The notes under the pieces: generated by a model
Told to the model about the DNA's origin: nothing
The model's database searches: none
The model's input: the letters and a program-made list of their open reading frames with translations, nothing else
DNA from: Jaapia argillacea MUCL 33604
Taxonomy: Eukaryota; Basidiomycota; Agaricomycetes; Jaapiales; Jaapiaceae
Direction of reading: 5' to 3'
Assembly (NCBI GenBank): GCA_000697665.1
Contig: KL197770.1
Span: 84,459-137,272, forward strand
Length of the DNA stretch: 52,814 nucleotides
Shown here: positions 2,278-52,681 of the stretch, piece by piece
How the letters are laid out: the number at the start of each line of letters is the position of its first letter
Numbering within the stretch: position 1 is the stretch's first letter
Made by a program: the position numbers and the translations under genes

Positions 2278-5215
2278 TTAACCACGTCCCCCCGTAATCT
2301 TGTACATCTCGTCCAACGTATCCGACGCCGTAGGCCTTCCCTTGGGTTCTCCGCTCCAACATTTCTGCACGAGGTTCCACAGATGGCTGTCCATGGTTCG
2401 GTGAATACTGGGCGGTCTAGCAATATCATCGGATTTGGGTGGCTGACTCCAGGGTTTAACATATCCGCTAACCTGAGCGTGGATAAGGGTATCGGCAGTG
2501 TTGGGGAAGGGATCCTCTCCGGTGTAGAGCTGATGAAGGGGAGTGAAGGGGAAATAAATCGTCTGCATAGTTGCGATAAATTTGCATAAACACCGACCTC
2601 GAGAACAACGCAACCAAAAGCATACACGTCTCCTGCTGCAGAATGAGACATCCCACGTAAAAACTCTGGGGCCAACCACCTGGCGTTGGTGGCTTTCTCT
2701 TCTCCAGCTGCAAAATTCAGGGCGACGGAGTCTGCCCTCGTAATGATGGTTGTCAGTCCGAAGTCGGCCAGTCGGGCGTGCTTCTCTTCATCGACAAGAA
2801 TATTCACCTGGAGTATTGATGATCAGTATATTTTGAACATCTCGTTCGAAAGAATAGGTTCGCGTACCGCGCGGACATCTCCATGGATGAATCCCCATTC
2901 ATGGATGAAGGCGAGGCCCGCCAGCGTTTCTCTCAGCTGGCCATCAAGTCATTGAGTGAAACCAGAGGATCAGGGGTGGTTTGACTAACCAAACGATTAA
3001 TGTCGGACACCGACACGTCTTGGTTTGCAACAAATGTCTTCGTGGATTTGTGCTTCATGAGGGGCGATACGAGATAGAAACCTGGCTGGTATTCAGCTCG
3101 TTGTTCGTGGTATATCCCAATAAACTCCAGGATTGAAGGATGTTTCAGTTCTTTCCAAGCTATGGCCTCGAGACACAACATCTAGGCTGTGCATGAGACC
3201 GCAGGCTCTAGCACAGAGGGGTGCATTCTGCTTACCGTTTTGACGTCCTCTGCGCTAATGTTTTGCGAAGATTTCAGAAGCTTCAAAGCAACCGGCCGGT
3301 CGTCAATTTCCCCAGGGTAAATGGAACCATACCCTCCACCACCGATCGGAGCACATTCCAGGTCGCGAGAAACTGGGGATGTGATGAAAAGCGAGCGTGG
3401 AGGTCGTCGCAAGTACCCGCAGAAATGACGCAACAGTCGAAAGGTTCGCTTTCTAAAGTGGTATAGGTAGTTTCCCTGACCATCAGGATCGAACTGACCG
3501 CAATCACGGGCACATCCTTCCCTATTTCGAAGGATGTAGTCCCTCGTGAGCTCGTCATCGAGTGCCTATTGTCGTTGGTCAAAGGTGAATGAGGGGAGAT
3601 GACATCGATACTGACCGCCTGTAGCGCATTGACCCACTCAAACATCTGAGAGTCATTTAAACCTCCAAATTGGATGTAAGGAATTGAAGAGTTGACTATT
3701 GCATCCAAAAACGAGAGCTGGCGTATGTCGTTCATTCTGTCGCGATCGTACGGGAATCCAATTCTACGAGCCCATTGATCGGGTGATTCTGGGACGAGTC
3801 TTCCGAATAACTTTTCGTGTGGTTTGGATCGTTCTTTCTTGCGAATGTAAAAAGTGTATGGCCAATGTTGAAGGGCCTTGGTCAAATTCGCGTCATAGTC
3901 TTTTAGTTCATCTGCAACCAAAGTAGCACGTAGGCCTGCGTTCTCAAGGGCCTTCATTGCTTGCATGCTGTCTTGGAGGGAGATATGAACCTATGACAGC
4001 GACGGTGAGATGGCATAGAGCAAGACGCAAATAACCGTACAGAGTAGGGCTTGACGGAAAGACGAGCAAGATAGCTGACGGCGGCGTCATATGGGGACAA
4101 TTTAAGCTGCAGCTCACCGAAATGTCGAGTGATAGTCGGATTTTTTTGCTTAAAATCCTCGTCGACATTCGTGAACAGGATACATTTATCCTGTCCAACG
4201 AATAAACGGGCTCGCCATTCGAGTTTCGTTTCATCGAGGAAAAGTAGGTATGCTGCAGGAACCCTGATCATGAATTCTACGAAGAAATTGGGTCCGCTGG
4301 TGCTTACCTATGGTGGCGAGGGACGAGATGAATTCGCCGGCCCTAGATAGTTCCTTGAGACGGCGCTGCAGTCTGTCGATTCGTTCAGAACGACCTGCTT
4401 GCTGTCAATAGTGGATCGATCGAATACCGCACCGCCAGACTCACCAATGACTTCGGCGTGGCTCGTCTCTGGAACGGAGAGACACATCCCACGTGGGATT
4501 TCCGGGGAAATATTGATCCACTTCAACGTGGGAGCAACTGTCTCCACCCCTGCGCGGTAGTACAACATCGTCACAATGCGCCTCATCCTGATATATGGGG
4601 TGTTGCTAGATAATCCCGCCCGTTGGCCCTTCTGATACTACGAATGAGCGATAAGCGAAGTCTTTGCAAGAAAATGCTCACAGTCATCTGTTCCTCGCAC
4701 TCCTTCAAGAGGTCAGCCACGTTATTACGGACCAACCAGTAGTCCGGCACATCGGGGGGTTTGTCGTCTTTTTCTCGCGTTATAAATAGGTGAGGATTCC
4801 CTTTGTGAGGGACTAGTCCCAGAGCTTGATCAACGCCCCCTCCTTCTCTAGGCGGTAGTCAGTTAAAGGAATGGGTTTATCAAATAGTATGCGACCGCAC
4901 CCGCAGATGTGGAATAAACACTTCTCGAAATCCATCAACTCCACCTGGCCGTGTGGAGTCTCGTTCATGACAAGGCTGAAGAGATTACAGTTCGTCAGTA
5001 AGTCTACACTTATCAGTGATCACTCATCGACTTACTACCAATCCAGTTGATGCTCCTCCATCTCCTTCCGTAACTGTGCCAAATCCTCCGACTGGCGGAC
5101 CCTGATCTCCGCCTTCGTCGGTTTGGGGGCAATTGATTCGGCCTTTATCGTTTGAGTTGGGGGCAGAAGATTGAGGGGAGAAATGCTCGTACCATATTTC
5201 AGTATTCACCTTTCT
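2278..5215 (-). CDS. Non-RD tyrosine-kinase-like protein kinase (K1), 5' part degraded or uncertain
   Basis: Minus exons with consistent splice sites: 4041-4276, 3616-3990, 3236-3565, 2990-3181, 2868-2936, 2598-2807, 2278-2529 (TAA stop). They encode a complete kinase domain: glycine loop GGGGYGSIYPG, ATP lysine in VALKLL, an N-lobe helix near AWKELKHPSIL, catalytic loop HGDVRAVN, DFGLT, APEFL, DVYAFGCVVLEV. Upstream lies the family linker (FRLLRHFCGYLRR) and the NALQ helix end. Farther 5' are blocks resembling the N-terminal region of K4-K6: ARLFVGQDKCILF near 4200, CLSVPETSHAEVIG near 4470, HLFITREKDD near 4780, and a charged helix with CLVMNETPHGQV near 4960-5100. These are not in one frame. 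A G-run at about 4847-4851 needs one base more or less, and the IGLDSRLF block of K4-K6 appears to be missing. The start codon was not found. The kinase half is well supported; the 5' half may be decaying. Confidence 0.7.
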
Positions 5216-5939
5216 GTGGTTTCGTAGAAGGTGGAGGGGAACGCAAGATAGACCCGCAGCTAATTATACTGGACTCCGGGGAGGAAAACCCTCCAAGCCT
5301 CGGACAAGATGAAACATATCTGGCCAACGTCAGGTTGTCAGACAATCCTGAGGAACGGATTCCCAGTTGATCGCAACGCGTTATTGTTTGGTTGGACGTA
5401 AATCAATAACACCATGCCTACCACAATATACGAGCCATGCATAGAACAAAAAGTGCTTGAGAATATATGGTCATTGTGGGCGCAAGTGGGCGCAGGCAGG
5501 TCCAACTAAACAGAAGCTTGGACAAAAAGCCCAGCCGGTGTGATGTGATGAAGCTTTTTGACCGGGATTTGGGTGATGGTGAAAGATATCCATACACAGA
5601 ACATTGCTAGTGTTTAGATTCAGGTATGAGGGAATAGCATGCTGTCACAAGTCGAGAAGGATATAACTGAAGTTCAAGTTGTGGTCGATCGGAGTTTAAA
5701 TTCTCGCTTTCATCCCAGCGCCCTTATTCAACCCAGCGAATTTCAATTTGTGGAAAGACAAGTGTTGTGAGATCGACGGGACGATTCAGCACAGACAATG
5801 GTCAAACCTTCCATGACATCACCAAGGGCTGAAATGTACAAAGACAAGCAGAGCAGGCTGGCCAGTCAGGTGGGTTTATGCGACTCTGATACGTGTCTGG
5901 ATCTATTGCGCTCTATGTGGGGGGTGGATCAATTACTTA
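5216..5939. other. Intergenic: possible 5' end of K1 and 3' flank of MFS gene
   Basis: 5216-5370 is open on minus and could be a further K1 exon (a GTGAAT donor-like site lies at its end), but no start codon is clear. 5380-5760 shows nothing recognisable. 5765-5939 is the MFS 3' flank that is duplicated at 296-405. Confidence 0.4.
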
Positions 5940-8490: not shown

Positions 8491-10212
8491 ATGCCTGATG
8501 GATCTACCCCTGTGGATACTACGGTATGCGATCCCCCCTCATCGATGGTCCTTCCCAGCTGACCTTACCCCCAGCGATCAGGATCAGAACCACCTATTGA
8601 TCAGAGTATCATCGCATGGGCAAACTACGCCCACCATATACACAAAGACGACCTTGAAGCATTGTCACAGTCGGACAAGGAAGAAATTAACACCCATGTA
8701 GCAAACCTCGTCGCGTCGTTGAAACGTGTCGCTGGCGACAACGCTATCACCGAAGCTGACCAAAGTCTCCTCGACCAGTACCGAGAGGGGTTGCAAAGCG
8801 ATCACCTCCCTCTCGACTTTGTTCGCTCTCTCGTCATCCTTTGGCTCCGATGTATCTTGGAGTCGGATGCTCCTGACCGTGTCCTTGCGCTGCGAGGTGA
8901 GGAAGCGAGGACATACATGACGGCTCTTCAGGAGGTAAGCTCTACATGTTTATAAACTTTCTCGATGATCATTGATCTCGGATATAGTTCCTTGATTGGA
9001 TGCGAAATGAGCCCAAAGTTCGCGAGCTCCTCCATAGATCCTCAGCACAGGAAATTCGCGATCTGAGGAGACGCACTATTCGTCTGTTATCAAACTTGTC
9101 CAGAGCATCGCAAGACTTCCCTCCCGAACTTTTTCTTCCCGCTCCTGGGAAGTTGCCAAGGGACCCTGTGGAGGGTGGTGGGTACGCGGATGTGTATAAG
9201 GTCTTGTCTGGAGACAAATACGTTTGCTGCAAGCTTATGAGAGCTTTCCACAACGCAGTACAAAATCCTGAGGCTAGACGCCTGGTAGCTCCGCCTCTAC
9301 AATCGACCAGGATCTACCCCGTTGATTGATTGATCTGTGTAGGAGTTCTTCCAAGAAGCCATAGTGTGGCGACAGGTATCCCATCCTTGTGTCGTCCCCC
9401 TTCTGGGCGTCTGGCAAGCCTACAAAGACAAGCCCCTCTTAGTTTCACCCTTTCTTGAACTTGGGAGCGCCAACAAATATGTTGGAAAACGTACCGTTCG
9501 GGCAAAGGTTGTAAATACTCTCGTGAGTCCCAAGGCTTGGAGTCAGACATCCCCTAACGGAGTCAATGAGCCCAGTTGCTCGACAGTCTGGATGGCCTCG
9601 TCTACCTTCACTCAATTGGTGTTGTCCACGGAGATCTATCGGGCGTGAGTTCAGGTCCCTCTATTCCACTCTCGTCCAACTAACGCCCTAAATAGAAAAA
9701 CGTACTCGTCGAGGAGCGTGATGGGAAGAAACATGCCCGCCTCTGCGACTTTGGCCTTTCTGGTATCGTCACCAATCCAACATCGTTGATGCACAATGCG
9801 AATCATCAGGCCCACGGCGGAACGGTTCGCTGGCAGGCTCCGGAAACCCAAGACGCTATGGGCAATGCGGCACAACTGCCTAGTATGAAAAGTGATGTCT
9901 ATTCGTTTGGATCCCTTGCTCTCGAGGTAATGTTCTGCCCATCGAATTTCCACCATATCCCGATTCTCATTGAACAATTTGTCGCAGTTTTACACTGGAA
10001 CGGCTCCTTGGGGCGAAGAGAACGACGAGGCGCAAGTAGGGTTGAAAGTAGTTCAGGGACTACGCCCGGAGTACCCTGATGATCGAGTATGTGGTAGACT
10101 GCTGCCGATGTCGCTTTGGTCCCTCATAGGTGACTGCTGGAAGCAGGATCCTTTGGAAAGGCCAGATGCAGCAACTGTGCTGGATCGCCTTCGCGCCCTA
10201 GTGTCGGTTTGA
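8491..10212 (+). CDS. Non-RD tyrosine-kinase-like protein kinase, short form (K2), 464 aa
   Basis: Exons 8491-8523, 8575-8934, 8988-9284, 9343-9522, 9576-9644, 9696-9926, 9988-10212; every intron is phase 0 and 51-61 nt. ATG 8491 opens an 11-codon first exon. Residues 12-131 are a helical block (AWANYAHHIH, WLRCILESD, LRGEEARTYMTALQ) shared with all family members. Next comes the linker with LRRR (157-160) and PPELFL. The kinase domain has EGGGYADVYK (about 193-202), Lys213 in VCCKLM, HGDLSGKN (catalytic Asp310), DFG at 331-333, APE at 361-363, and DVYSFGSLALE. All catalytic residues are present. HGD replaces HRD, so it is a non-RD kinase. It lacks the N-terminal region of K4-K6. It is probably cytosolic, with no signal peptide or membrane helix. 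Substrate unknown. Tandem with K3 and K4. Confidence 0.88.
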
Positions 10213-10696: not shown

Positions 10697-12497
10697 ATGG
10701 CGTATTTGTCGCCTGATTCGGTACACGCTACCAAAGGACCAAGCCCCCCGAAAGCCGAGGTAGGTTCATCGATACGATCCTCTCCCCCTCCTTATCTTCG
10801 ACGTGTGCGCTGATGTTGTGATGGTCATTTTCCCCCCGACCGATATCAGTCTCCTCTCCCCGATTTCGCGAAGACGAGCATCTTGTCTTGGCCTGGCTCT
10901 TGTTGTCTGCTCTATGATAACGGACGATTTGGCGAGCTTTCTGCCTCGGAGAAGGCGAGCATTATCAAGAATTCGACTGTCCTGACCGAGGAATGGAATA
11001 TCCTTCCTGGCCCTAAGCTGCCCACCTCCCCGGCTGATGGGCAGTTTGTTCTGGAACTCCAGCGGATTCTCCGCAGTGACCGGCTCGACTGGACTGCTAC
11101 CCGTACAGCTATCGTCATTTGGCTGAAGTCAATTCTTAATGTAAAGGAGGCTTTTCGATATATCCGTGACTCCCTTCGGGGCGATGACGCCAAGCTGTAC
11201 CTCGACGCTCTCCAGAAGGCAAGTTTACGCCGCTCGTCTCAGGGCGTTCCACCCTACTAAACTTCAGTAATCTCAGCTTCTCGACTGGATGCGCGAATCG
11301 ACCCAGGAGGTCGCTGGCATCTCGAAATGTTCGGCCGTCGAAATGCAAGACCTTCGTCGACGGTGCATCCGACTCCTTATCGCCCTCTCAAAATCATCGG
11401 ACGAGCTACCTCCATCATTATTCATCTCTGAAGGCTTGGATACCCCGCCTGGCAGAGATCCAGTGAAATCTGGGGGCTTTGCGGATATCTTCAAAGGAGT
11501 TTACCTGGGACGAGAAGCGGCGTTTAAACGGATGCGTATCTTCATCACTGGCGCTAACCCGATAACGGCACGCAAGGTGAGTTGTACCTCCTTTGTTGAT
11601 CGTCTCTTTCAGTTCTCATGCGTCTCGAGGAAAGACTCTGCTTCAAGAGACTCTATTTTGGAGACAGGCCAATCACCCATCGATCCTCCCATTTTATGGT
11701 GTTTGGCGTGATTATCCAGCGATGGAATCGATGCCCTATCTGATATTGCCATGGATATCCCACGGAGATGCCCACAACTTCTGCCAGACACGAGCCATTC
11801 TCCCCGCCGTTATCAATCGCCTCGTGAGTCTACGGGCGTTGGTTTTCACATCTTCATCTAAAGGCCACCTTAGTTAATCCAGGTCGCGGAAGGCCTTGAG
11901 TATCTCCATGCCGAAGGGATGATCCATGGTGACTTGACTGGTGTTCGTTCCCATTTCGCACATCTAAGGTCGCTACTCACAAGCCGAATGACTTGTAGAG
12001 CAACGTCCTCATCGACGAAAGAGATGGGCAACATCACGCTCGCTTATGTGATTTTGGCCTCACGTCATTGTTCACGAATTCAACATCTTTTCTCCAGACG
12101 GCTAATCACAGCACTGCGACGGGCGGGGCTCCTAGGTGGATGGCTCGCGAATTGTTCTGGCCTACCCTCAGTGATCCCACTTTTGCCAGTGACATCTACG
12201 CCTTTGGATGTGTCGCTCTAGAGGTCAGTCAGCTTGTTTTATAGTCGTACATGAGTAACCATATGATGACGAATCGTGACACAGTTGTACAGTGGTTTGG
12301 AGCCATTCCATGGTATTCACGCATTCCAAGTTCCGCAGGTCATATCAGCTGGCCAATTGCCGCAGAATCCAGGTGGTGGACAGTACGGTCGATTCATCCC
12401 CGCACAACTTTGGGAATCGATCGGCGACTGTTGGAAGGCAAATCCAGAAGATAGACCTAATGCTACGGCTGTCTTGACCGTTCTACGGCAACTCTAG
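10697..12497 (+). CDS. Non-RD tyrosine-kinase-like protein kinase, short form (K3), 475 aa
   Basis: Exons 10697-10759, 10850-11218, 11277-11576, 11635-11823, 11874-11942, 11999-12223, 12285-12497; all phase 0. ATG 10697. The helical block (SILSW, LSASEKASIIKN, LRGDDAKLYLDALQ) aligns with K2, followed by LRRR (170-173) and PPSLFI. Kinase domain: SGGFADIFKG (about 209-218), Lys228 in AAFKRM, HGDLTGSN (Asp327), DFG at 348-350, DIYAFGCVALE. The APE motif reads ARE (379-381); the Glu that pairs with the conserved C-lobe Arg is kept. Intron 2 starts GC, not GT (GCAAGT, 11219), with a clear TACTAAAC branch site. The acceptor of intron 3 (GGAAAG, 11634) is weak but is the only one that keeps phase. 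The gene looks intact and is the nearest paralogue of K2 in layout. Confidence 0.85.
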
Positions 12498-18000: not shown

Positions 18001-18116
18001 CGCCACAGTTGTGGAAGTTATTCGAGGAATGTTGGCGCGGTAGTCCCATTGAGAGACCTGGAGCAGAGGTCGCCCTCAAACGCTTGCGGGAGATCGCCAA
18101 CGTGGACATGAGCTGA
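15036..18116 (+). CDS. Non-RD tyrosine-kinase-like protein kinase with full N-terminal region (K4), 808 aa
   Basis: Exons 15036-15256, 15319-15390, 15440-15602, 15653-15848, 15898-16035, 16085-16278, 16336-16779, 16832-17131, 17194-17226, 17286-17435, 17489-17557, 17616-17828, 17883-18116; phases agree throughout. The N-terminal blocks in order are: charged helix (VEMRGRLRKIRDLM), AYLFFERQHL..W, VGFDARIL..FIDMIWAD, RLKVIRNWIK..VLIVSPPSIG, SYLFVGLEMCVLFAD, then LLSPGTPHAIAYFLA and the helix ending EDFLEAVQQ. The linker LRRR is at 502-505. Kinase: HPGGFADIYKG (about 540-549), Lys559 in IALKR, HGDLCGNN (Asp657), DFG 675-677, APE 705-707, DIYSFGCVGVE. All catalytic residues are present except HRD Arg, which is Gly. 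An extra intron splits WRQ from LDHPC, absent in K2. No membrane helix seen. The N-terminal blocks match K5/K6 in order but belong to no family I recognise. Confidence 0.88.
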
Positions 18117-35600: not shown

Positions 35601-35611
35601 TTAACCTCCAT
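32602..35611 (-). CDS. Non-RD tyrosine-kinase-like protein kinase with full N-terminal region (K5), 781 aa
   Basis: Exons 35585-35611, 35472-35512, 35331-35408, 35123-35279, 34797-35070, 34408-34742, 33994-34350, 33635-33937, 33328-33570, 33205-33273, 32910-33131, 32602-32841. The start is set by homology to K4 and K6: ATG 35611 opens a 9-codon exon (MEVKLDKLS) ending in GTAAGT. Blocks: QQLRAEMLKQRVDYY, ALHLFVNDGEV, TIGLDSRLFTHLQI, FLDLIMVDMVW, LRRWLVSSHASAALLITP, ESYLYVDQSECALF, DVYGFLRHRRREG with a K/E-rich helix after it, LLPSDIPHAIV, LRGAEAQLYLDALQ. Linker LRRR is at 449-452. Kinase: RGGTWSDVYQG, Lys506 in VALKVL, HGDISGKN (Asp625), DFG 643-645, APE 673-675, DVYAFAMLCWE. Catalytic residues are present; HGD replaces HRD. 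Closest paralogue is K6, including introns and flanks. Confidence 0.87.
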
Positions 35612-39013: not shown

Positions 39014-39317
39014 TGTCATGTACTTTTTGCTTTCGGTCACCTGACCCATAGAACATTCCTTACTATTCTAACCTGTAGCATTAAGGACTCTTCTGACTCG
39101 GTATGACGCCTTATTGCACCATCGGACTATTATTAGATCACTCATGTAGTATATAAGCTTGTACCACTTCAATGCAAACGCCAGTCTTGAGCTGGTCTAT
39201 TCCAAACCAGCCACACCTGTGTGTCATCGGTCGACCTCATTACTCCTTGATCGCTACTCGCACTACTCTTCCGGCGTTGCTGCCAGTCACATCCCTGGTT
39301 GTTGTTTGTTGCTGACA
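39014..39317 (+). repeat. 5' LTR, 304 bp
   Basis: TGTCATGTAC to TTGCTGACA. Contains a TATATAAGC box (about 39156-39164), the probable transcription start signal. Confidence 0.92.
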
Positions 39318-39379
39318 TTAGCTCAAGACTTTCCCTACCAACCGCCCTTGTGCTCGCATACGGCAGCCAGGAGTATCCG

Positions 39380-39628
39380 ATGTTGACACCGACCTATACC
39401 GCGTCAAGACGCTCGAGACTAGTTTCGACACCCAGCATATGTACACCAAAATCTATACCAGCAAATACCGCCTCAGCTATCCCCGCGACCCCGCCTTCAC
39501 ATACGCCGATGCTGTCTGTGGACTCCGAGTCCAACACGCCGTTCTTCATTGGCGCTTCTGCAAGAACTACTATTGCAGGTACCACACTGAGTACTGAAGA
39601 ACCTCACCACGTGGAAAGCTCCCCCTAA
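39380..39628 (+). CDS. Retrotransposon leader ORF, 82 aa, Ser/Thr/Pro-rich, unrecognised
   Basis: First ATG after the 5' LTR. Composition is dominated by S, T, P and A (IPATPPSHTPMLS). No family recognised. It may be an upstream ORF in the genomic RNA leader rather than a functional protein. Confidence 0.35.
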   Translation: MLTPTYTASRRSRLVSTPSICTPKSIPANTASAIPATPPSHTPMLSVDSESNTPFFIGASARTTIAGTTLSTEEPHHVESSP

Positions 39629-40091
39629 AATACAAAAGCCGTTCTTTTGATTACTCCCACTTGCGTACTCTCGGGTATCCCTGGTTTACGTTGATCTACC
39701 TTTGCCGGTGATCAGGTCCGGAATAAGCTTGTGTTTGAATAGAGGGCCGTCATACCCCTATCGCACTCGCAGGACTTCAAGCGAGTACAATTGAAAGGTT
39801 TCCCACACATCGTAAAAACATAAATAAACAGTAACATACAAAAATATCATAAGGCCGCAGCCGAGAAGTCATTGGTGCTAGTAGAGTGTTGACTAGGCCT
39901 TGACCCTGCGAAGAAGCTCTCCTTATCGGAAGCTTACAACACCCATGAAAGTGGATTCTTCCGGAACTTGTCTAGTGGCGTAAACCCGTTCCGACATACA
40001 TGGTAGACCCTAGGGATTTTCCCAGAATTCACTTGGCCCAGATTCTGAATTTCACATACCCCGGTTCACACGAGAACCAACCCCATTTCTC

Positions 40092-40649
40092 ATGCCACCT
40101 CGCGAAATTGACACCATTATCAATTTCATTTGCCGGATCATCCTTATCTTCTGCGAAGCACTCCACCTCGGCATTGCAATTTGTTCTCACATTCGTGGGA
40201 GCCTTGTACACGTCCACAACCGATTACTCCGTTTGGTAATCACCACCACACAATCCACATACTGGCCGATCGCAGTACCAGCTGTCACGTTCCGGTTTGA
40301 TCCCGACGGCAACATCGATCATCACATCGGAGACCTATATAACAAGGAGGATTTCCATCATCCTTGGACAGAAGCACCCACTCCTCCACCACCAGCAGCA
40401 CCTTCAGTCGGAACACCTGACTTCACCACTTCACCACCTCGTTCTCCATCACCGCCGAGCCCTCACGAACTCAACTTCCTTGCTCGTCTCGCAGTACGTG
40501 ACGGAGTACGACGACGTGCTCTTGCCGCTGACCCTCTCGACCTCCTCCAGGCCCGCATAAACACCCTTAACTCTACCCTCGACTACCCAGACACTCGCAG
40601 TAATACTCCCGACTACGAGAACTACGAGGTTGCTGACGTAGAAGAGTAG
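40092..40649 (+). CDS. Retrotransposon accessory ORF A, 185 aa
   Basis: ATG 40092 to TAG 40647-40649. The N-terminal third is hydrophobic and helical (IINFICRIILIFCEALHLG), followed by a proline-rich middle (PTPPPPAAPS, SPPSPHE) and an acidic end (NYEVADVEE). No family recognised. It lies before gag, where most Ty3/gypsy elements have only a short leader. Its stop codon directly touches the ATG of ORF B (TAGATG). Confidence 0.55.
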   Translation: MPPREIDTIINFICRIILIFCEALHLGIAICSHIRGSLVHVHNRLLRLVITTTQSTYWPIAVPAVTFRFDPDGNIDHHIGDLYNKEDFHHPWTEAPTPPPPAAPSVGTPDFTTSPPRSPSPPSPHELNFLARLAVRDGVRRRALAADPLDLLQARINTLNSTLDYPDTRSNTPDYENYEVADVEE

Positions 40650-41105
40650 ATGCCCATTGACGCCAGACACTTTGCCCCCGTTCAGTTCAATGAACACCTC
40701 ATCTTTTGGGTTGTTTGCTTGTTAGAAGCGCTCCGCACCATTCTCAACGTTCTAGGAGAAGTTCGTCCATATCTCACCAATGACAAACTACTCCGTGTCA
40801 AAGGACCCACAACCGACATCCTCAACATCAGGGAGGCATTAGTAGAGGCAATCAACAGAGGAGAGTGGAGACAAGAAGTAGTGGAGTACGCCCTGGAAAG
40901 GCGATACAATCGGTACGGAGAAGAAGACCCCCTGTTTGCACCCGACGAAGACATAGAAGGAAATCCCATCCTCGACGTCCTCATCCCCATCCCCGAACCA
41001 CCATGCTTCGAGGAAGTAGTTCCTGAGGTTATAGATTTGACAGAGGACGACGACACTATTGTCAAAGGAAGCGGAACCGAAGGAGATCCTTTTGTACTTC
41101 TGTGA
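40650..41105 (+). CDS. Retrotransposon accessory ORF B, 151 aa, with SUMO-interaction-like motif
   Basis: ATG 40650 follows the stop of ORF A with no gap, a layout that would suit termination-reinitiation. The protein is mostly helical (FWVVCLLEALRTILNVL) with an acidic second half. Near the C-terminus (about residues 124-134) it reads EVIDLTEDDDT, a textbook SUMO-interaction motif: a hydrophobic VIDLT core followed by acidic residues. The family is not recognised. The 50 bases after its stop are A/T-rich, and the gag frame opens after them in another phase. Confidence 0.6.
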   Translation: MPIDARHFAPVQFNEHLIFWVVCLLEALRTILNVLGEVRPYLTNDKLLRVKGPTTDILNIREALVEAINRGEWRQEVVEYALERRYNRYGEEDPLFAPDEDIEGNPILDVLIPIPEPPCFEEVVPEVIDLTEDDDTIVKGSGTEGDPFVLL

Positions 41106-41581
41106 TCAGAGAGGCGAAAGTAGTTTAAATTACGTAAAACATTTAAACTGCCACCTTGAATCCAGACAGAGGACTCCCTTGTTTCGGTCGTCTCCATAAC
41201 TACTATAAAAGAGAAGGAAACGACATTACCTTTCCCCCTTTTAACGACGACAACTCAGAGGATTGCGAAGTCACACCCTGCCCAAATCGATATACCTACA
41301 CCAGGCACGATACCTACGACTACTCACAAGAAGCAGAAGACGGATTCAGACCGGTCACTCCGGAGCATATCTTTTGGGAACTCTGCAGGTATCGAGAACC
41401 ATCACAGATCCCTGTCGAGTCACCCGAGGCTCCCACACGAGTAGCACCACCAGGAGCTGTTACACCTCCATCACCAATCACACCGCCTACACGGTTAGCC
41501 CAACTACCACCCCTTGGTGTAACCCTAGCACCAGTCCCTCCACCCCAATTACCCCAACTACCCCCAGCACAAACAACCGTC

Positions 41582-42790
41582 ATGGCTGCGATACAAATGA
41601 CAGACGTGCAGTTCAATCAGCTTCTTGCTGGATTACGACCAGGAGGAGCTAAGGTGGAAAAAGTTGTTGCGCCAGGAGTCTTCGAAGGAGACAAAAAAGA
41701 ATACGAGGATTGGTGCAACAACCTTGACTCGTACCTCGAAGCCAACTCCACCTTCTATAGCAACGATAAGGCAAAATTCCTTTATGCCACATCATTACTC
41801 AGAGGAGGGGCAGCCCCCTGGAGGAAGCAAGTTCAAACCTTCAGAACTCGACATGAGCAAGAACTCGTCACCGAGAAAGCACGCCCCACTCCAGACCAAA
41901 CCCGAGTTGTCCAACTAGAAAGCCTGATCTCATGGACGTACTACGTATGGGAGATGGACAAGAGGTTCGGCGAAGTCAACAAAGAGGAAAAAGCGCAGCT
42001 ATGCATGATGGAGATGAAGCAAGGGACAAGGACCGCTGACGAGTACATCACCGATTACAACCGGTTGATGTTAGAAGCGAACCTCACCTATCCAGATGAG
42101 GTCCACATCGACAATCTGAAACGGAACATCGCCACCGAAATGATCCGAAAGATAGAAACAAGCAAGGACGACCCACCTACCACGTACGAGTCCTATGCTC
42201 ACCTCATTATCCGGATTGACGAAGCTACACATCAATTCAATGCACAACATCACCAACAGATGCAACTCTCAGCACAGGCACGTCCTTTTGTCCCTCGTCC
42301 CCAAACTATGTTCGTGCAGCGCAATCAACCCCCTTGACCATTCGTCCAGCAGTATTGCCCACCATCTGGACCCCCACCATCACAATCTGGATCTGGCCAG
42401 AATACGCAAAACCGGAGAACTGGCACAGGTACGACATTTGGCGGCGGTGGCCAGCCAATGGATATAAGTCGTACACGTGCCTCAGCAGTTTGCTACAACT
42501 GTCAACAAAAAGGCCACTTCACTTGGGACTGCAAAGAACCGAAGCGATCTCTTGTCGAACGATCTAGAGAGATGTTTGTACAACACACGCCAGAAGAACT
42601 CGCAGAACTCCGCAACCTTCTGGACTTCATAAACCAAAACAAAAACATCGAAGAAATGGATTATGAAAATGCCCAAAAACAGGAGCAGATGGACGAAGTC
42701 CCAGTAGAGTATGTAGAAGTAGAAGACGACCCTAATTATGTGCCTGATGACCCTTCTTCTGTTTCTCCTTCTTTTCACAGCAGTCGATAG
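41582..42790 (+). pseudogene. gag: gag (capsid and zinc knuckle), interrupted by one TGA
   Basis: The frame is open upstream from about 41156 without an ATG; the first ATG is 41582 (MAAIQMTDVQ). The capsid-type Retrotrans_gag domain covers about residues 30-200 (YEDWCNNLDSYLEA, LLRGGAAPWRK, EYITDYNRLML). An in-frame TGA at 42335-42337 breaks it. The same frame then continues through a Gly/Ser/Pro-rich stretch to one CCHC zinc knuckle (CYNCQQKGHFTWDC, about 42491-42532) and an acidic tail, to TAG 42788-42790. If expression depends on the upstream open segment, the protein would have a proline-rich N-terminal extension. Confidence 0.85.
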
Positions 42791-45700
42791 TTAACGATAC
42801 CGATTATCAACAGGACATTTTCCTCTCAGGTTCCAGATACTCACTGCTAAATTATTCTAACGCATTGCATACGGACAGTACCATAGAAGTAGATAGTGGT
42901 ACCACGGTGAATCTAGTCCCTGATGCTCCCACAGGTATCGGACTGGATAAAAACTCACTAAAACAACTACACACCCAAACTGCTGAACAGTTCTGGTCTT
43001 CTATGAAGGAGCGTAGTCAAAAAGATCAACTCGCTATGCTTCGTAGATGGACTCCCAGAGCTAGACGCTCTGAAGTTGCATCACCACAGATCCTGAAGGA
43101 ATTGATTTCCTCAGCGAATCCTGTGGAAGCAGTGGCCGAGTTGCGGGAACCTCGCAAATATTGTTGGATTCGTAAAACCACTACAAACCGAGGGTTTGAA
43201 CTGGACGTTGACGTACGAATCAAGAATCTTCAGACTCAAGAAGTCTTCAATGAAAAGGCCTTGATCGATTCGGGATGTACCTTTTCAGCTATCAATGCTA
43301 AATACATCGACAAACTGGGTCTGGATACCATCGAGTTTGCTAGGCCTGCAGCGGTTTACAACACTGATGGCACTCGCAACTCCACTTCCATCACTTGCTA
43401 TTGCCAAGTCGAGATGGAATTGTTTGGCCACAAGGAATCTATTTCCTTGTGCGTAACAACGCTGGCTCGTCATAATATCTTCATTGGTTATGATTGGTTG
43501 ACTAAACATAACCCTGATATCAACTGGGTTGATAGTACGCTCGTTTTTAATTGTTGCCCCTCCGAGTGTGGGGTTACGCCTGATTTGCTTTGATGCGCCG
43601 ATGTGGGTCATTCACTTGGGTTGGATGATGTCGATTTTCCCGACAACGACAGTGGTGATCTGGAATCTCACCTTAGGAGGGGAGATAGAGTCTTTGTAAC
43701 TCATTTTGAACCTGCTTGTGTACGAGCCACTGGCACATTGTCAACCCAATTGGCCATAGAAGCGGAACTAAAACGCGAAAAGAAGCATTGGACCGAGATT
43801 GTATCTCCACAATTCCACGACTTCGTGGACGTTTTCACCAAGGAGGACTTCGAAAACACTCCTGACTTGCAGATCTGGGATCACGCCATAGAATTGAAAC
43901 CAGGTTCGACACCTACGGATTGCAAACTATACCCACTGTCACCAAGTGAACAAAAGGAACTAGATGTATTCCTGGAAGAAAATCTGAATACTGGACGTAT
44001 CAGACCTTCTAAATCACCCATGGCATCACCATTCTTCTTTGATAAGAAGAAAGACGGATGACTCAGACCGGTACAGGACTACCAAAAGCTCAACGATATG
44101 ACGATCAAAAATCGTTATCCACTTCCACTCATTGGAGAACTGTTCGATAAATTAAAAGATGCCAAATACTTCACGAAGTTAGACATTCACTGGGGATATA
44201 ACAATATCCGCATCAAGGAAGGAGACAAATGGAAGGCTGCCTTTAGGACAAATCGAGGATTGTTCGAACCTCTGGTTATGTTCTTCGGGTTAACCAATTC
44301 CCCTGCCATGTTTCAAACCATGATGAACGAAATCTTTCGTGAATTAATCAATGATGGCCACATCATCATCTATATGGACGATATATTAATATTCACCAAA
44401 ACCCTGGAGGATAATCGTTGAGTCACCAGACAGGTTCTGGAAATTCTTCGACAACATAAATTATACCTCAAACCAGAGAAGTGCGAATTCGAGAAAGAAA
44501 CCGTGGAATACTTAGGACATATCGTGTCTGCAGGGCAAATCTCTCTCGATCCAGTCAAGGTTCAGGGAGTGCTTGGATGGCCATTACCAAAGTCCAAACG
44601 AGACATCCAATCCTTCCTCGGGTTTTGCAATTTCTATCAACGATTCATAAAAGGGTTTAGTGAGATTGCACGACCCTTAAATGACCTTACTGGAAAGACT
44701 GACTTCCGCTGGACGGATAGTCAACAACAATCCTTTGAAAGTCTCAAAACAGCGATCACATCCACACCCGTCCTTCATCATCCCACTAACACCGACAAGT
44801 ATCGTGTGGAAACAGATGCTTCCAACTATGCTGTAGGAGCTGTGCTCTCTCAACATCAAGAAGGAAAATGGGTTCCGATCACCTTTATGTCCAAATCCAT
44901 GAATGACATTGAACGAAATTATGAAATTTATGACAAAGAAATGCTCGCAATAATGAAAGCTCTCAGGGAATGGTGTCATTACCTTCTCGGAGCGGAACAA
45001 GAATTTGAGGTCCTTACCGATCATCAGAACCTCACATACTTCTGTTCACCTCAGAAACTCAATCAAAGACAAGCACGTTGGTACACGGAGTTAGCCGAAT
45101 ATCATTTCACACTACAACACAAGGCTGGAAAAGAAAACACCAAAGCCGATTTGTTGTCTTGTCGTCAAGATCATAGTGATGGACGAGAAAATGATAACAA
45201 CGACATCACAATGCTCAAACCCCATTGGTTCCAACATTGGATGAGATCAAATGAGGTTGTATTCGAGGAAGTGACACCGCCATCTTGGGAATGATAAAGC
45301 ATGCTAGGAGGAAAACAGATAAATCAGTGGAGATTGCTCTGCAAACAAAGAAGCCAGGCTTCGTAGAGCATGACGGAATAATAGAGTGGAAGGACCGTAT
45401 ATATGTTCCAAAAGACCCGACAATTCACGAAGAAATCATTCGACATCATCATGACGTACCAGAAGCAGGACATCCAGGAGCCGCCAAAACCCAACAAATG
45501 ATCACATGTGACTATTGGTGGCCCACGATTCAATATGATGTCAAGAAGTATGTTGATGGATGCGTGGATTGTCAACACGCTAAACCTCGTCGAGGCGCTA
45601 CCCACGCTCCCTTACACCCAAACCAAATACCGGATTTACCAGGAGAAATAATCGGAATCGATATGATTGGTCCATTACCGATGTCCAAAGGATGTGACGC

Positions 45701-46790
45701 TCTTCTCGTCATAACCAATCACTTAGCCAAGAATATACAACTATTACCCATCACCACCGGATTGTCCGCACCAGGAGTCGCCCAACTCTTCTGCGATCGA
45801 TGGTGGTGCGAATTCAGGTATCCCCGAAAAGTTGTCAGTGATCAAGGAACTCAGTTCGTATCGAACTTTATGAAAGAGCTCCATAGCCTTATGGGAATCA
45901 GCATGAACCCATCAACTGCCTATCATCCTCAGACTAATGGTCAGACAGAACGCATAAATCAAGAGGTTGAACTCTACCTCCGCATCTTTATCAACCACCA
46001 TCAGGATGATTGGTACGATTGGATCTCCCAGGCTGAATTCGCATATAACAACAAAACACACTCCACTACGGGATACTCTCCTTTCTATTTGTTATACGGC
46101 CGACATCCGTGGACCGGAGTCAATTATCGAAGAAAGGCAAATAACGAGTCTGTCCAAGACTTCCACAATCGGATGCACAGAACTTGGGATGATGCCAAAG
46201 CCACAATGGCTAAAGCACAAGAACAAATGAAGTTACATTACGATCAAAAGAAGTCTGACTTGTATCACTTCAAAGTTGGCGACATGGTATGGTTGGAAGC
46301 TATGAATATTATGACGGATCGTCCTATGAAGAAGTTGGACGACAAACGATATGGCCCCTTTAAAATCATAAAACAACATGGATCCGCCTATGAACTCGCC
46401 ATTCTGATCGAATGGAAGAAGCAACGAATTCATCCAGTCTTCAACGAAGCGTACTTCCGTCCTTACAAGAAGAGCGAATACAGTAACCAGAAGAAGCCTC
46501 CTCCTCCTCCCACAATCGTCAGTGATGGTTCGGAACAGGAGATTGAGACCTTGACCCAGTACCGAGAACACAACAGTAGTATTCAATATATGGTCAAGTG
46601 GAAAGGACAACCTTCTGGGGACAACCAATGGATGGATTGGAAGTTTGTGAAGGAACAACGAGAAGATTTGATGAAAAAGTTCCATCGAGAGCATCCTGCT
46701 TATCGACCTCCGGAGAAGCTGATCTTACACTCTCTCCAGGTTCGGGCACTTCCACGTGATGCTCTGGATTGCAATGACGATGATCCATGA
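42751..46790 (+). pseudogene. pol: pol (protease, reverse transcriptase, RNase H, integrase, chromodomain), interrupted
   Basis: The frame is -1 relative to gag and overlaps it for about 40 nt. Protease active site DSG at 43267. RT with the catalytic pair in YMDD (44371-44382). RNase H start VETDASNYAVGAVL (about 44808) and TDHQNLTYF. Integrase zinc region with the H..H..C..C pattern (about 45447-45577) and the D,D-35-E core (GIDMIGPL, VVSDQGTQF, TNGQTERINQE). The chromodomain near the end reads YMVKWKGQPS..NQWMDW (about 46588-46645). Breaks: TGA at 43591, 44059 and 44419 in frame, and a one-base frameshift near 45285-45294, between RNase H and integrase, where a TGATAA is met. No other decay is visible. 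Confidence 0.9.
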
Positions 46791-46803
46791 GGACATGGAC
46801 CTT

Positions 46804-46816
46804 GAGGGGGGGGTAA
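46804..46816 (+). promoter_or_regulatory. Polypurine tract (plus-strand primer) before the 3' LTR
   Basis: GAGGGGGGGGTAA lies directly before the TGTC that opens the 3' LTR. Confidence 0.8.
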
Positions 46817-47120
46817 TGTCATGTACTTTTTGCTTTCGGTCACCTGACCCATAGAACATTCCTTACTATTCTAACCTGTAGCATTAAGGACTCTTCTGAC
46901 TCGGTATGACGCCTTATTGCACCATCGGACTATTATTAGATCACTCATGTAGTATATAAGCTTGTACCACTTCAATGCAAACGCCAGTCTTGAGCTGGTC
47001 TATTCCAAACCAGCCACACCTGTGTGTCATCGGTCGACCTCATTACTCCTTGATTGCTACTCGCACTACTCTTCCGGTGTTGCTGCCAGTCACATCCCTG
47101 GTTGTTGTTTGTTGCTGACA
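46817..47120 (+). repeat. 3' LTR, 304 bp
   Basis: Identical to the 5' LTR except for two bases, both C in the 5' LTR and T in the 3' LTR, and both in CpG. Confidence 0.92.
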
Positions 47121-47279: not shown

Positions 47280-47475
47280 CACTTACTAACTCAGTCGGCC
47301 CTCGAGCTCTTGCTCTACAGCATCAACTGATAGTCGTAATCACTGTATCTCGCTCACCCGTCCTCTAGTTTCTGCAATGTACTTGGGTAGACCCTCGGAT
47401 CAACATTTCGGTCAGTTGCTTTTCATATCCCATCACTGTATTGTCGTGTCCACCTTGTAGCGTTGCGATACGATG
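47280..47475. repeat. Kinase 3'-flank repeat, copy 3
   Basis: Matches 32150-32327; it lies 3' of K6. Part of the K5/K6 segmental duplication. Confidence 0.75.
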
Positions 47476-47649
47476 CACACACATTACTCTGCAACGTCCA
47501 ATCGCAGGCCATTTGCCCATTCTCCGGATCACCCAATTCCAAACCCACGAACGGCGCACACAAACAAATTATACCTCGCGTACCCAGTGTCCGTAAAAAT
47601 ACAAGGTCCCAATACATTTCCATCCGACCTCATCCCATACCCCAACGAC

Positions 47650-50600
47650 TCAACGACGCCTACTCCTAACCGGCACCGCCAACTTCCCCTCCAAAGACTG
47701 GACAACATCAACAGCCCAAGGCCGATCCTCAGGCCAATGATTCCAACACGTCTGAACAACGTCCCATAAAATATCGGGCATCACTCTCTCCCCACTCCGA
47801 TTCTTTGAATCTAATTTATAAGGCCGCTTCTTGTCCTTCACAACGTGTTGGTCGATATCGGCAGTGGCTTTATTCCAGAATGGTGCTTTTCTGGCGTAGA
47901 GCTGGAACCACACACACACACATATATATAAATCCAATGTCAGCAGAGAGACAAAGGAAGGGTAGACGTTGAAAGGGAGAGAACGAACCTCCCAACATAA
48001 CATGGCAAAAGCATACACATCACTAGCAGCAGTTGCCTTCCCATCCAACCCATCGTCCTTACTCAAAATTTCAGGAGCCATATAAACCTTGGTACCTCCC
48101 TGCGCGAGACTCGCAGTAATGTAGAACACCGAGTTGGGGTTGGTAAACAATCTCGTCAACCCGAAATCGCACAACTTTCCACGATATTTGGATGTCACTA
48201 ACACATTCGTCTAGTCCACAGAGGAAATCATCAGTAATGGAACGAGATATGAATAAGGTGAGGCTCACCCCGGATATATCACCATGAAAGACCCCCTGCG
48301 AATGCAAGTAAGTCAGACCATTCGCAACGTCCATTATCTAAAACGTACACATCAGCTCAGGCTCTTTCCCGAAAAACAAAGTACCAAAACGTACCACCTG
48401 ATTAACATAGATAACATCGACGTTCTCCAATTTACTGAACGTCGACGCATTCACAAAGTCGCTCAGCTCTAGGACCATATGCACCGTGGTGTCGGAAGCG
48501 ATATCCGAGGACGAAGAGTTGCTGCCCCAACCAGTGGATGTATCCAAAGAATCAGAGTCGGGCTTCCAAATCCCATGGAATCGTAGAATAGATTCGTGTT
48601 GTAGCTGTTTCCAAGCCAGAGTCTCCATACATAACGCCTAAAGCAACGACCGAACCTTCAGCTTTCTCTGCCCGGTCAACCCACCAAGAGAATACACTTA
48701 CTCTTCGTCGACGGTCCCGAGATTTAGGATCAGGATCGTTAAGATGTCGGAACACTTTCAGCGCAACAGGTTCTCCGAGGTACGTTCCTCGGTAAACATT
48801 CGACCATGCGCCCCCACGCCATGGAGTCTCGTCCCGAGTAACTTGGTCCGATGGAATGAGGATCGAAGAGGGGAACATCTCGGCTTTCCTAGCGAGGTTC
48901 ACTAGCATTCGTAACGACCTTCGACGTAACACTGGCACGTCTTCGTTCTCACTCCGGGCAAAGAACTGGTATATCGCACCCCTTGGAAGTGTTTCATTCA
49001 ACACCTCATGGCGTAGCACGGTCAACTGAAGTCGGGACAGGACGAAGATATCGACTCACCAGTTGCAAAGCATCCAGATACCGTTGCGCCTCGATTCCAC
49101 GAAATTGTGAGACATATAGACACGCATCCTTGTTTTGCTGTAGATGCCATAACCAATTTATGACCTGTCTCCCTGGAGTACCAGAGTTGTAAGCAGGTTG
49201 CGGCCGGATATCTCTTTCGAAATATGTTGCAGGGTCATCAGGAGTAGGGTTCACCACATTCGGAAGGGTTAGCCCGTATTGAGGCCACAGCTTGATGCTT
49301 TCTTCAAAGGCGGTTTCGAAATTTGTCAGGTCTGGAGGCCACGAAGTTGGAAAGACGCAAAATTCGACCCCGATTTCCTTCACAACGGCATGCGAGGTGG
49401 TTGAAGGCAACAATATCTATCAAGCCAAAGAAAATCAGAGATTTTTAATCAAAAATCGAAGTGACTCGCTTACTTTCCAGGTTTCACCAGGTTTTTCACC
49501 CGGTTTCTGGAGCAATCGACACACGCGGTTGATTCCCAAAATTTGACGTGTTTTGCTTTCTGCTCGTTTCCTCTCGGCCTGATTCTTTGCTTGTTGTTTC
49601 GCTTTGACCCCTTCCTGGCGCCGATGATGAAGAAAGCCGTATACGTCTTGATATGGGCGAACTGAAAATCCGATATCCTTCAAACGCTGGATCAATTTGC
49701 CGGCTTTGGAGTTCGTCGAGTAAAGGCGCGAGAAGAGGGCGCATTCGGAGTGGTCAATGTATAAGTACGATTCAGGCAACGGGTTCGCAGCAATGTGAAG
49801 GACATAGGCTGAAGGTGGCGGTTCAGTTCCATCACAAGTTTTCAAAGGTGTCAAAATATTACCGATGGAGAGGGGTGTGACAAGGAGAGCAGCGGATGCC
49901 CGGGACGATACGATCCATCGGCGAAGCAACTCAACCCTCGACCAGGGATCAGGTACTTCGACGAGCTGGATTGAATCGGAGACGTCTTTCGGTCGTTCCC
50001 AAAACATGTCAACCATAATCTGATCAAGGAATTTTAGCGTAATTGCAGGCTGGTGATGCTGAATACTCGACTCCAGGGCCCTAATTTGCAGATGGGTAAA
50101 GAGACGGGAGTCCAAGCCGATAGAGCGACCCAGGCAGTTTTTCTGGTGTAAATGTCGTTGGGAGAGGTACAATCCCGAATTGGTTTCGACTTACAATGAT
50201 CCACTCCATCCAGGGTTCCAGTCCAACGGGAAGAACTGTCCATTGATCTTCCACCAGGAAATATCTTTTTGCCCTCGTAACATCTTCATCGTCCACAAAC
50301 AAATGGAGTGTTGATTGGGATACGATGGCAACAGCCGAAGTGGCTGAAAACCTATAATCTGTCCATCAACGCCAAGAACGCTTAGGGATGGTTTTGACGA
50401 ACCCAGACGCCACACGTTCAACCCGCCGGTCGCCTGAGCGGAGTGGTCGAGATCCGTGAGAATTCTGGTTGGGAATAACGCTGGACCGGAACCAGGTAGC
50501 ATAAGCACAGCAGCACGGGGCGACGAGCGACGATGTGACGCACTAGTAGTCCACCTCTCGCTGCAGCATCTCAGTTCTCAGTTTCTGTGGGGAAACAACG

Positions 50601-50664
50601 GCTTGATGAACGTGCAAAACGCGAGTCTTAGCGGTACGAGACTTACAGAAAGATTATCCTCCAT
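47650..50664 (-). CDS. Non-RD tyrosine-kinase-like protein kinase with full N-terminal region (K6), 784 aa
   Basis: Exons 50647-50664, 50544-50584, 50403-50480, 50195-50351, 49863-50142, 49474-49808, 49060-49416, 48702-49004, 48395-48637, 48269-48337, 47989-48210, 47650-47901. Eight exons have the same length as in K5. ATG 50664 opens a 6-codon exon (MEDNLS). Blocks: TLHLFVDDEDV, SIGLDSRLFTHLQI, FLDQIMVDMFW, LLRRWIVSSRASAALLV, ESYLYIDHSECALF, DVYGFLHHRRQEG with a basic/acidic helix, LPSTTSHAVV, FRGIEAQRYLDALQ, linker LRRR. Kinase: RGGAWSNVYRG, VALKVF, HGDISGTN, CDFGL, MAPEIL, DVYAFAMLCWE. Catalytic residues complete; HGD instead of HRD. The C-terminus ends VRSRRR where K5 ends PHG. Its last intron holds a CA/TA microsatellite. 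It lies between the retrotransposon and K7, same strand as both kinase neighbours. Confidence 0.87.
47909..47930. repeat. (CA)n(TA)n microsatellite in the last intron of K6
   Basis: About 22 bp of CA then TA units, absent from the K5 intron; it lengthens this intron to 87 nt. Confidence 0.8.
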
Positions 50665-51190
50665 AGAGAGTAATGAAGAGGTTGGAATGGCTTTTGCAAG
50701 TGTAAGTAGATGGGAGGAGGCGAGGCTTGTCAGACTCACAAGGTAACCCGTTCTCTATTTATTCTCAAAAAGCCGGCGGTGTAGGGCATTGCAACCGTCC
50801 CGATTAACCGAGACAAGACATAAGGACCCACAGAGCGACGTGATATCATTCCAGCACACTGGAGACAACAAAGCAGCGAGCACTGGTTGCCAGGCGCGGA
50901 GGAAGGTGTCGTTTCTTGTTCTTCTTGAGCGATCAAGTTCGCAACTGTGGCGAATTTGAAATTTGGGTCCGATTCAGAGAGGAGGCGGAAGGAGAGTGGT
51001 GAGATGACGGGATGGCCACGGAGGGATTTGTATATGTGTACATCCACAACCAGACATTGCCACAGCGCAATCGCGCCCAACATTCTCGCAAAAGAAAACA
51101 CAAGTACCCATCTCAAGTCCATCAATAACGATAGCAATACTAAATGTACATCCAATCATGCAAACCGTCGCGTGCAATATCCCCAACCGC
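50665..51190. other. Between K6 start and K7 stop
   Basis: Holds the K6 promoter. On minus, 50890-51110 reads open (includes VDVHIYKSLRGHPVISPLSF and AQEEQETT), and its AQEEQETT part matches the K5 upstream flank near 35920. It may be an exon of a gene broken by the duplications; no family recognised. Confidence 0.35.
50755..50768 (-). promoter_or_regulatory. Candidate TATA box of K6
   Basis: The minus strand reads GAGAATAAATAGAG about 100 bp before ATG 50664, aligned with the K5 TATA candidate. Confidence 0.5.
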
Positions 51191-52681
51191 TTACCGACGC
51201 CCACCGCTAACCGGCGCGAACTGCCTCTCCAACCATCTTACAACCTGTGAAGCCTCAGGCCGATACTCAGGTTCATCACTCCAACACCTCTTAAGAACGT
51301 CCGGCAAGAAACCGGGCATCGCTCTCACCCCAGGCGAAGTCCGTGGGTTCAATATAGGCGGTCGCTCGCCCGACGCTACATGTTCAACAAGATCATTTGG
51401 AAGCACGTCCGAAAACGGTGGTTTCCTGGCGTAGAGCTGTAACATACACATACACACATCAGAGACAATGGGAAAAGTGAATCTTGAATAGGAAACAGAC
51501 GAACCTCCCAAGACAACATGGAAAACGCATAAATGTCACCAGCATCAGTCGCCTTCCCATCAAGTCCATCCTTCTTAAGCAAAAGTTCCGGAGCTAAATA
51601 AACCATAGTACCTCCCTGCGCCAGACTCGCAGTAACGTATAAAACCGAGTTGGGGTCGGTAAACAATCTCGTCAACCCAAAATTGCACAACTTTCCACGA
51701 TGTTCGGATGTGACCAGCACGTTCGTCTGGTCCACGAGGGACATATCAGTGATGTGTTAGAATGTGAATAAAGAGGGTCTCACCCCGGAGATATCACCAT
51801 GAAAGATTCCTTGCTCGTGCAAGTATTCCAGACCCTTCGCGACGTCCAATATCTAACACATACACATCAGCTCAGGCTCTCTCCAAAAACAAATGGCCTC
51901 AACGTACCACCCGATTCACGGAGGTGACGTCAATTTTCTCCATTTTGCTGAACATAGACGCTTGTACAAAGTCGCTCAGCTCTAGGACCATATGCACCGT
52001 GGTTTCTGAAGTATTATCTGACGACGCAGAGTCATTGCCCGAATCAGTGGAGGTATCCAAAGTATCTGAACCGGGTTCCCAAATCCCGAAGAATCGAAGG
52101 ATAGATTCATGTTGAAGCTGCTTCCAAGCCAGGGTCTCCAAACACAAACCCTAACACAACGACCGAACCAAGCCGAAACATCAGCTTTCTCCATCCATTG
52201 AAACCACCAAGAATTCCACTCACCCTTCGACGACGTTCCCGTTGACTAGGATCAGGATCCTGAAGATGGTGCAACACCTTCAACGCGACAGGTTTCTCAG
52301 ACTCAGAGTACGTTCCTCGGTAGACATTCGACCACGTGCCCGACCGCCACGCAGTAGGTTCCCGACTCACGTGGCTCGATGGGATGAGGATTGAAGAGGG
52401 GAACATCTCGGCTTTCCTGGCGAGGTTGACAAGCATTCGTAACGACCTTCGACGCAACAATCGCACATCTTCGTTCTCACTCTGAGCAAAGTATCGATAT
52501 ATCGCACCATCTCGATGCGATTCATTCAATACCTCATGACAGAGTAGGGTTAACCAAAGTTTGAAGTAGGACGAAGAAATCGGCTCACCAGTTGCAAAGC
52601 ATCCAGATATAGTTGCGCCTCTTTTCCACGAAGTTGTGAGATATAGAGACACGCATCCTTGTTTTGCTGTAGATGCCATAA
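51191..52681 (-). pseudogene. Truncated non-RD kinase gene with NFG in place of DFG (K7)
   Basis: Exons 52589-52681 (partial), 52224-52532, 51908-52150, 51784-51852, 51505-51726, 51191-51436; borders match K5/K6. It retains the end of the helical block (QLYLDALQ region), the linker with LRRR and MFPSSILIPS, a glycine loop WRSGTWSNVYRG, Lys in PVALKVL, HGDISGTN, and LAPEL. The metal-binding DFG Asp is Asn (KLCNFGLTRLF, near 51690), and the loop before the lysine has three extra residues (YSESEKP). The 5' part is cut at CCATAA|TGTCACG, where an LTR begins, so no start or N-terminal region remains attached in this window. It is a decayed gene; the pseudokinase change may have come before or after the insertion. 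Confidence 0.8.

What the first reader, a model, noticed from the sequence alone, without database searches (positions are those of the whole stretch)
2278..52681. A seven-gene cluster of non-RD kinases with an unrecognised, modular N-terminal region
Seen: K1-K7 all read HGD, not HRD, at the catalytic loop (HGDVRAVN, HGDLSGKN, HGDLTGSN, HGDLCGNN, HGDISGKN, HGDISGTN twice). K4, K5 and K6 share about 400-450 residues upstream in fixed block order: LFV..W, GLDSRLF..FLDxIMVDMxW, LRRWIVSS..LLVTPLSIG, ESYLYVDxSECALF, DVYGFL..RR, LLPS..HAxV, LRGxEAxxYLDALQ, then LRRRxxRxL and the kinase. K1 keeps remnants. I recognise no named domain in these blocks. Known: non-RD kinases in plants and animals often act in innate immune signalling (FLS2, Xa21, RIPK, IRAK types). 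Inference: this may be a lineage-specific fungal signalling or sensing family evolving by tandem duplication.
Basis: partly seen in the sequence, partly recalled or inferred. Interest (0 to 1): 0.85.

Follow-up and report, generated by a model that had tools for sequence, protein, structure and literature searches.

The report
Kinases fused to half a peptidase
A fungus carries a family of signalling kinases whose unexplained front part turns out to be the non-catalytic front half of a proline-cutting enzyme, related to a gene still present in the same genome, which suggests that a retired enzyme domain was reused as a kinase control module.

The parts
2278..5061 (-). K1: fusion gene with a divergent aminopeptidase-P N-domain (about 5061-3890), helical linker (to 3616) and kinase (3565-2278)
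   Evidence: Own spliced model (last exon set by hand); Pfam Creatinase_N 17.8 and Creatinase_N_2 19.2 bits, both below cut-off; no BLAST match to APP2; APP2 intron pattern: three of five exact, two same phase but shifted 2 and 8 columns; 87% identical to the copy at C62:75-78k
8491..10212 (+). K2: kinase with the helical linker but no peptidase N-domain; 5' end uncertain
10697..12497 (+). K3: kinase with the helical linker but no peptidase N-domain; predicted in two pieces, 5' end uncertain
15036..18116 (+). K4: fusion gene; N-domain about 15180-16447, linker to 16779, kinase 16832-18116. The exon near 15897-16037 is mis-framed in my model
   Evidence: Creatinase_N 26.5 bits, cut-off 22; Creatinase_N_2 17.0, below 29.7; APP2 27% identity, E 1.7e-29
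32602..35611 (-). K5 (JAAARDRAFT_82082 = P0001): fusion gene; N-domain 35611 to about 34250, linker to 33994, kinase 33898-32602
   Evidence: Creatinase_N_2 46.3 bits, cut-off 29.7; Creatinase_N 25.6, cut-off 22
47650..50664 (-). K6: fusion gene; N-domain about 50584-49316, linker to 49060, kinase 48965-47650
   Evidence: (Creatinase_N_2 28.5 bits, 1.2 below cut-off)
51190..52681 (-). K7: 3' half (part of the linker, and the kinase) of a fusion gene interrupted by an LTR; a K5-like 5' half with the N-domain ends contig C39. 3' end approximate
52677..52681 (-). 5-bp target-site duplication TTATG at the LTR that splits K7; same 5 bases at C39:304409
39014..47120 (+). LTR retroelement, probably Ty3/gypsy, between K5 and K6 (LTRs 39014-39317 and 46817-47120, 99.3% identical); the two LTR pieces at K7 match it at 93-94% and 81-82%

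Best explanation
SHOWN: the shared N-terminal region is domain I plus domain II of aminopeptidase P, without the metal-binding catalytic domain III, joined through a helical linker to a TKL-like kinase. It derives from an APP2-like gene whose 5' half, introns included, was captured upstream of a kinase and then multiplied, mostly on contigs C39 and C62. N-domain and kinase are both kept by purifying selection in the four pairs tested. INFERRED: the protein is an intracellular signalling kinase whose dead peptidase half serves as a dimerisation or ligand-binding platform. Homo- or hetero-dimerisation through these domains (possibly with APP2 itself), or binding of a peptide or partner protein, would bring kinase domains together and switch them on, as TKL kinases are often activated by dimerisation (recalled). 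My odds: identity and origin about 0.95; the gating mechanism about 0.45.
Against: No experiment, expression or interaction data. K1 and C62:76k have no BLAST match to APP2, and C39:147k and 161k only 2e-4; K1 is below both Pfam cut-offs. Intron agreement is incomplete: P0004 lacks intron 1, six of 13 miss intron 5, none matches intron 3 to the column; three models do not reach intron 1, and the intron-5 edge of C39:263k was set by hand to agree with database protein P0003. The confident structure model used an alignment holding five bacterial peptidases; the one from fusions alone had mean pLDDT 58. The kinase tree does not put the fused kinases in one clade (two changes; one change in 18% of bootstrap trees), so a single fusion event rests on a moderately supported branch of the N-domain tree (82/71, with long branches flagged) and a shortened loop. 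That these domains dimerise in the enzyme is recalled, not tested here.
Confidence: 0.6

Rival explanations
1. Integrated decoy: the peptidase half imitates a housekeeping enzyme that a rival's or parasite's effector binds, and the kinase reports the binding.
For: Clustered, diverging copies of a captured domain whose apparently intact parent type persists. N-domain less conserved than kinase in two of four pairs (78 vs 94% and 68 vs 80% identity) and with a higher omega point estimate in three of four (0.42 vs 0.21, 0.37 vs 0.23, 0.45 vs 0.41), bootstrap ranges overlapping. A decoy role has been proposed for plant kinase fusion proteins such as Sr43 (PMC10260397, passages).
Against: No N-domain omega above 1; in two of four pairs the N-domain is as conserved as the kinase (85 vs 82%, 79 vs 79%); no effector or phenotype known.
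Confidence: 0.2
2. Prozyme-like regulator: the kinase heterodimerises with active APP2 through the shared domains and controls, or senses, peptidase activity.
For: Fold and origin shared with APP2; APP2 keeps DSGGQY, HGTGHGVG, NEPGYY and RIES motifs. Dead paralogues that regulate live ones are known (PMC5201418, start of abstract in the search listing only).
Against: Fusion N-domains keep at most 39% identity to APP2; interface residues were not examined.
Confidence: 0.15
3. Decaying fusion: the N-domain is an inherited relic without function.
For: Strong divergence of K1, K7 split by an LTR, uneven intron retention.
Against: N-domain omega 0.37-0.45 with bootstrap ranges under 1, and no internal stops in the compared coding parts of four pairs.
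Confidence: 0.05

Closest known systems
Aminopeptidase P / Xaa-Pro aminopeptidase (C. elegans APP-1 4s2r, human XPNPEP1 3ctz)
   Same: Domains I and II, their order and fold; for APP2 of this genome also most intron positions
   Different: Catalytic M24 domain absent and replaced by helical linker plus kinase; the RGQDVPYNPVF loop of domain II in APP2 is shortened in the fusions readable there
Agaricomycete TKL / FslK kinase expansions (PMC3937382, PMC2838846)
   Same: TKL-like kinase, Agaricomycetes, species-specific duplication
   Different: PMC3937382 says only 16 of 241 FslK members have additional domains; the word creatinase occurs in neither main text
Plant kinase fusion proteins such as Sr43 (PMC10260397)
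   Same: Kinase joined to an unrelated domain, proposed to be an integrated decoy
   Different: Different kingdom and domains; no immune phenotype known here
Spt16 of FACT (recalled)
   Same: A non-catalytic aminopeptidase-like module reused for binding
   Different: Spt16 keeps the pita-bread domain and is a histone chaperone (recalled); no Spt16 profile was listed or 34
FunK1 fungal kinases (PF17667)
   Same: Fungal kinase family with many copies here (66 exon matches in this genome)
   Different: None of the 66 matches lies on the window's contig; these kinases fit PF07714/PF00069 far better

Membership tests
Aminopeptidase P (M24B) | Creatinase_N and Creatinase_N_2 domains in order at the N-terminus | tested here: met
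   Both over cut-off in P0001 (K5), P0003, P0004; P0002 (truncated database model) Creatinase_N_2 only; K4 Creatinase_N only; K6 and K1 below cut-off
Aminopeptidase P (M24B) | Catalytic M24 domain with metal ligands | tested here: not met
   No PF00557 listed for K1, K4, K5, K6, P0001-P0004 up to E 10; APP2 homology stops at about residue 302
Protein kinase, TKL-like | PK_Tyr_Ser-Thr domain over cut-off, with Lys, HxD, DFG and APE motifs | tested here: met
   PF07714 104.7-144.8 bits in P0001-P0004; APE invariant in the eight rows of A1; DFG in 11 of 13 fused copies, absent in C39:257k, and in C62:72k the model has a gap there
FslK lineage (PMC3937382) | Falls in the FslK clade of a kinase tree | not tested
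   No FslK reference sequences were at hand
FunK1 (PF17667) | Whole-domain PF17667 match | tested here: inconclusive
   P0001 25.3 bits against cut-off 24.1, but on 79 of 387 positions; not listed for P0002 and P0003; P0004 10.8 bits
Non-RD immune kinases | Non-RD catalytic loop | tested here: inconclusive
   12 of 13 fused copies are non-RD (10 HGD, 2 HCD), 1 is HRD; 4 of 4 unfused relatives are HGD
Non-RD immune kinases | Role in immune signalling | not testable with these tools
   Needs genetics
Spt16 / FACT | Spt16 N-domain profile match | tested here: inconclusive
   No Spt16 family among the rows listed up to E 10; absence of a row is weak evidence

The most novel reading that the evidence does not exclude
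A basidiomycete has built a family of about 20 genes of intracellular surveillance kinases, most in one cluster, in which a captured, catalytically dead aminopeptidase P is the recognition domain: an integrated-decoy-like receptor family of fungi, made of parts unrelated to NLRs.
Probability: 0.2. Interest if true: 0.82.

Novelty: new variant of a known kind. Interest (0 to 1): 0.6.

Why it matters
TKL-like kinases are expanded in mushroom-forming fungi, and PMC3937382 says the exact functions of its FslK group still need experiments. This family carries a recognisable accessory domain with a living relative in the same genome, so its input can be sought directly: does it bind APP2, peptides, or a foreign protein? 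It is also a clear case of an enzyme's non-catalytic half becoming part of a kinase, with shared introns as a record of the event. Five literature searches (listings only) showed no paper that by title or abstract start describes it; the tool covers open-licence PMC papers only, and it dropped the underscore, so 'creatinasen' was sought.

Tried and rejected
Rejected: 'no named domain' and FunK1 as the family. Spt16 was considered; nothing supported it, but it is not excluded.

Led nowhere: Creatinase_N searched in the whole genome found nothing, probably because introns cut it into short exons. The homologue searches are weak evidence on distribution: one search found only K5 itself although paralogues at 35-40% identity exist; one search found three Jaapia fusions and one bacterial peptidase; (profile; 120 of 152 hits shown) listed P0004, other kinases and bacterial peptidases but not P0001-P0003; each scored only about 8,000 candidates. 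Absence outside Jaapia is therefore not shown. A regular-expression tally of HxD motifs in 30 kinase loci failed (3 of 30 gave a hit, all HRD), so I give no genome-wide HGD frequency. The kinase tree did not resolve whether the fused kinases are one clade.

Full report
WHAT IS THERE. The window is G000:C62:84459-137272, the right end of a 137,272-base contig in a 43.7-Mb genome. A database protein identical to K5 but for one splice site (97% by the tool's count) names the species: JAAARDRAFT_82082, Jaapia argillacea MUCL 33604, a 'hypothetical protein'. Seven kinase genes with an HGD catalytic loop are present. Spliced models come from a small exon-chaining script of mine.

WHERE IT CAME FROM. 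The genome has an aminopeptidase P on C6 (APP1) and a second one on C16 (APP2). APP2 keeps the DSGGQY, HGTGHGVG, NEPGYY and RIES motifs, so it looks active; the meaning of these motifs is recalled. In BLAST, APP2 matches five fusions at 33-39% identity (P0003, C39:295k, C39:257k, C62:72k, P0004; E 4e-42 to 2.6e-55), K4, K5 and K6 at 23-27% (E 1.7e-29 to 6e-11), C39:147k and 161k at 24% (E 2e-4), and K1 and C62:76k not at all; the matches stop at residue 302 of APP2, and APP1 matches APP2 at 30%. K1 and C62:76k are tied in through the other fusions (K1 and P0003 match end to end, E 5.6e-42) and by introns. In the tree APP1 and five bacterial APPs split off at 100/100, leaving APP2 with the fusions; the branch that sets the fusions apart from all peptidases has 82/71, and long branches were flagged. 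APP2 has five introns here, phases 2,0,1,1,0. Exact column and phase agreement among 13 modelled fusions: intron 1 in 9 (three models start later, P0004 lacks it); intron 2 in 11; intron 4 in 10; intron 5 in 7 (K1, C62:76k, K4, C39:295k, 257k, 263k, 219k); intron 3 exact in none, but the same phase within 8 columns, in a gapped stretch, in 10. Random sets of five introns in 900 sites shared three in none of 200,000 draws. An APP2-like gene's 5' half was therefore captured with its introns; the junction lies inside an exon, just before the M24 domain would begin. In the fusions readable there, the domain II loop RGQDVPYNPVF of APP2 is shortened.

HOW MANY. I modelled 13 fused genes: K1, K4, K5, K6, C62:72k, C62:76k, C39:147k, 161k, 219k, 257k, 263k (P0003), 295k (P0002) and C2:1.76M (P0004), plus split K7. 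A whole-genome search with one N-domain gives 15 loci at E up to 1e-3 besides APP2; K1, C62:76k, C39:147k and 161k come from other evidence, making 19. Loci at C1, C16:503k, C74, C39:281k and 290k were not modelled. The ends of C39 and C62 hold the two halves of a K5-like gene broken by an LTR, with TTATG on both sides; the LTR pieces match the LTRs of the window's element (93-94% and 81-82%) and overlap by only 6 bases. So C39 and C62 probably abut, and 15 of the 19 loci would form one cluster of roughly 220 kb (inference).

IS IT FUNCTIONAL. In four paralogue pairs N-domain omega is 0.42, 0.42, 0.37, 0.45 and kinase omega 0.21, 0.44, 0.23, 0.41; bootstrap 95% ranges are all under 1, and no internal stops were seen in the compared parts. 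Both parts are maintained, the N-domain with a higher point estimate in three of four pairs. DFG is present in 11 of 13 fused copies; C39:257k lacks it, and the C62:72k model has a gap there.

NON-RD. Of 13 fused copies 10 are HGD, 2 HCD and 1 HRD; four of four unfused relatives are HGD. HGD does not mark this architecture.

MECHANISM. Shown: identity, origin, multiplication, constraint. Inferred: domains I-II of aminopeptidase P serve dimerisation and substrate access in the enzyme (recalled), and TKL kinases are often switched by dimerisation (recalled); a dead peptidase half gating a kinase is the simplest use. Integrated decoy and prozyme-like regulation remain open.

LITERATURE. PMC3937382 (abstract, passages and the first part of its results) reports FslK kinases expanded in Agaricomycetes, 16 of 241 with extra domains. 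PMC2838846 (passages) reports many TKL kinases in Laccaria. PMC10260397 (passages) proposes integrated decoys on plant kinase fusions. No paper on this architecture appeared in the listings.

Noticed in passing
window 39014-47120: Young LTR element, probably Ty3/gypsy (LTRs 304 bp, 99.3% identical; integrase zinc-binding, Tf2-1 SH3 and chromo domain matches over cut-off, rve below), between K5 and K6.
   Followed up: partly
window 52675-52814 and L066 (C39:302800-304580): Contigs C39 and C62 appear to abut inside an LTR inserted in K7, with a 6-base end overlap and a TTATG target-site duplication.
   Followed up: partly
window 19305-21742 and 25033-27174 (+): Two similar membrane-protein genes; the first matches LtrA (PF06772, 51.6 bits), a 294-residue piece of the second gave no Pfam row.
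   Followed up: no
window 5896-7733 (-): Major facilitator superfamily transporter gene (PF07690, 103.6 bits).
   Followed up: no
window 28361-29744 (-): Partial thiamine-pyrophosphate enzyme-like gene (PF00205, 23.8 bits, below cut-off 30.4).
   Followed up: no
L021 and L022 (C39:147k and 161k): Catalytic loops HCDMRAAN and HCDMRASN, close to the tyrosine-kinase pattern DL(R/A)A(A/R)N quoted in PMC3937382.
   Followed up: no
G000:C16:503k, C74:53k, C1:3.20M: Further N-domain-like exons outside the cluster, with kinase exons close by at C16 and C1.
   Followed up: no
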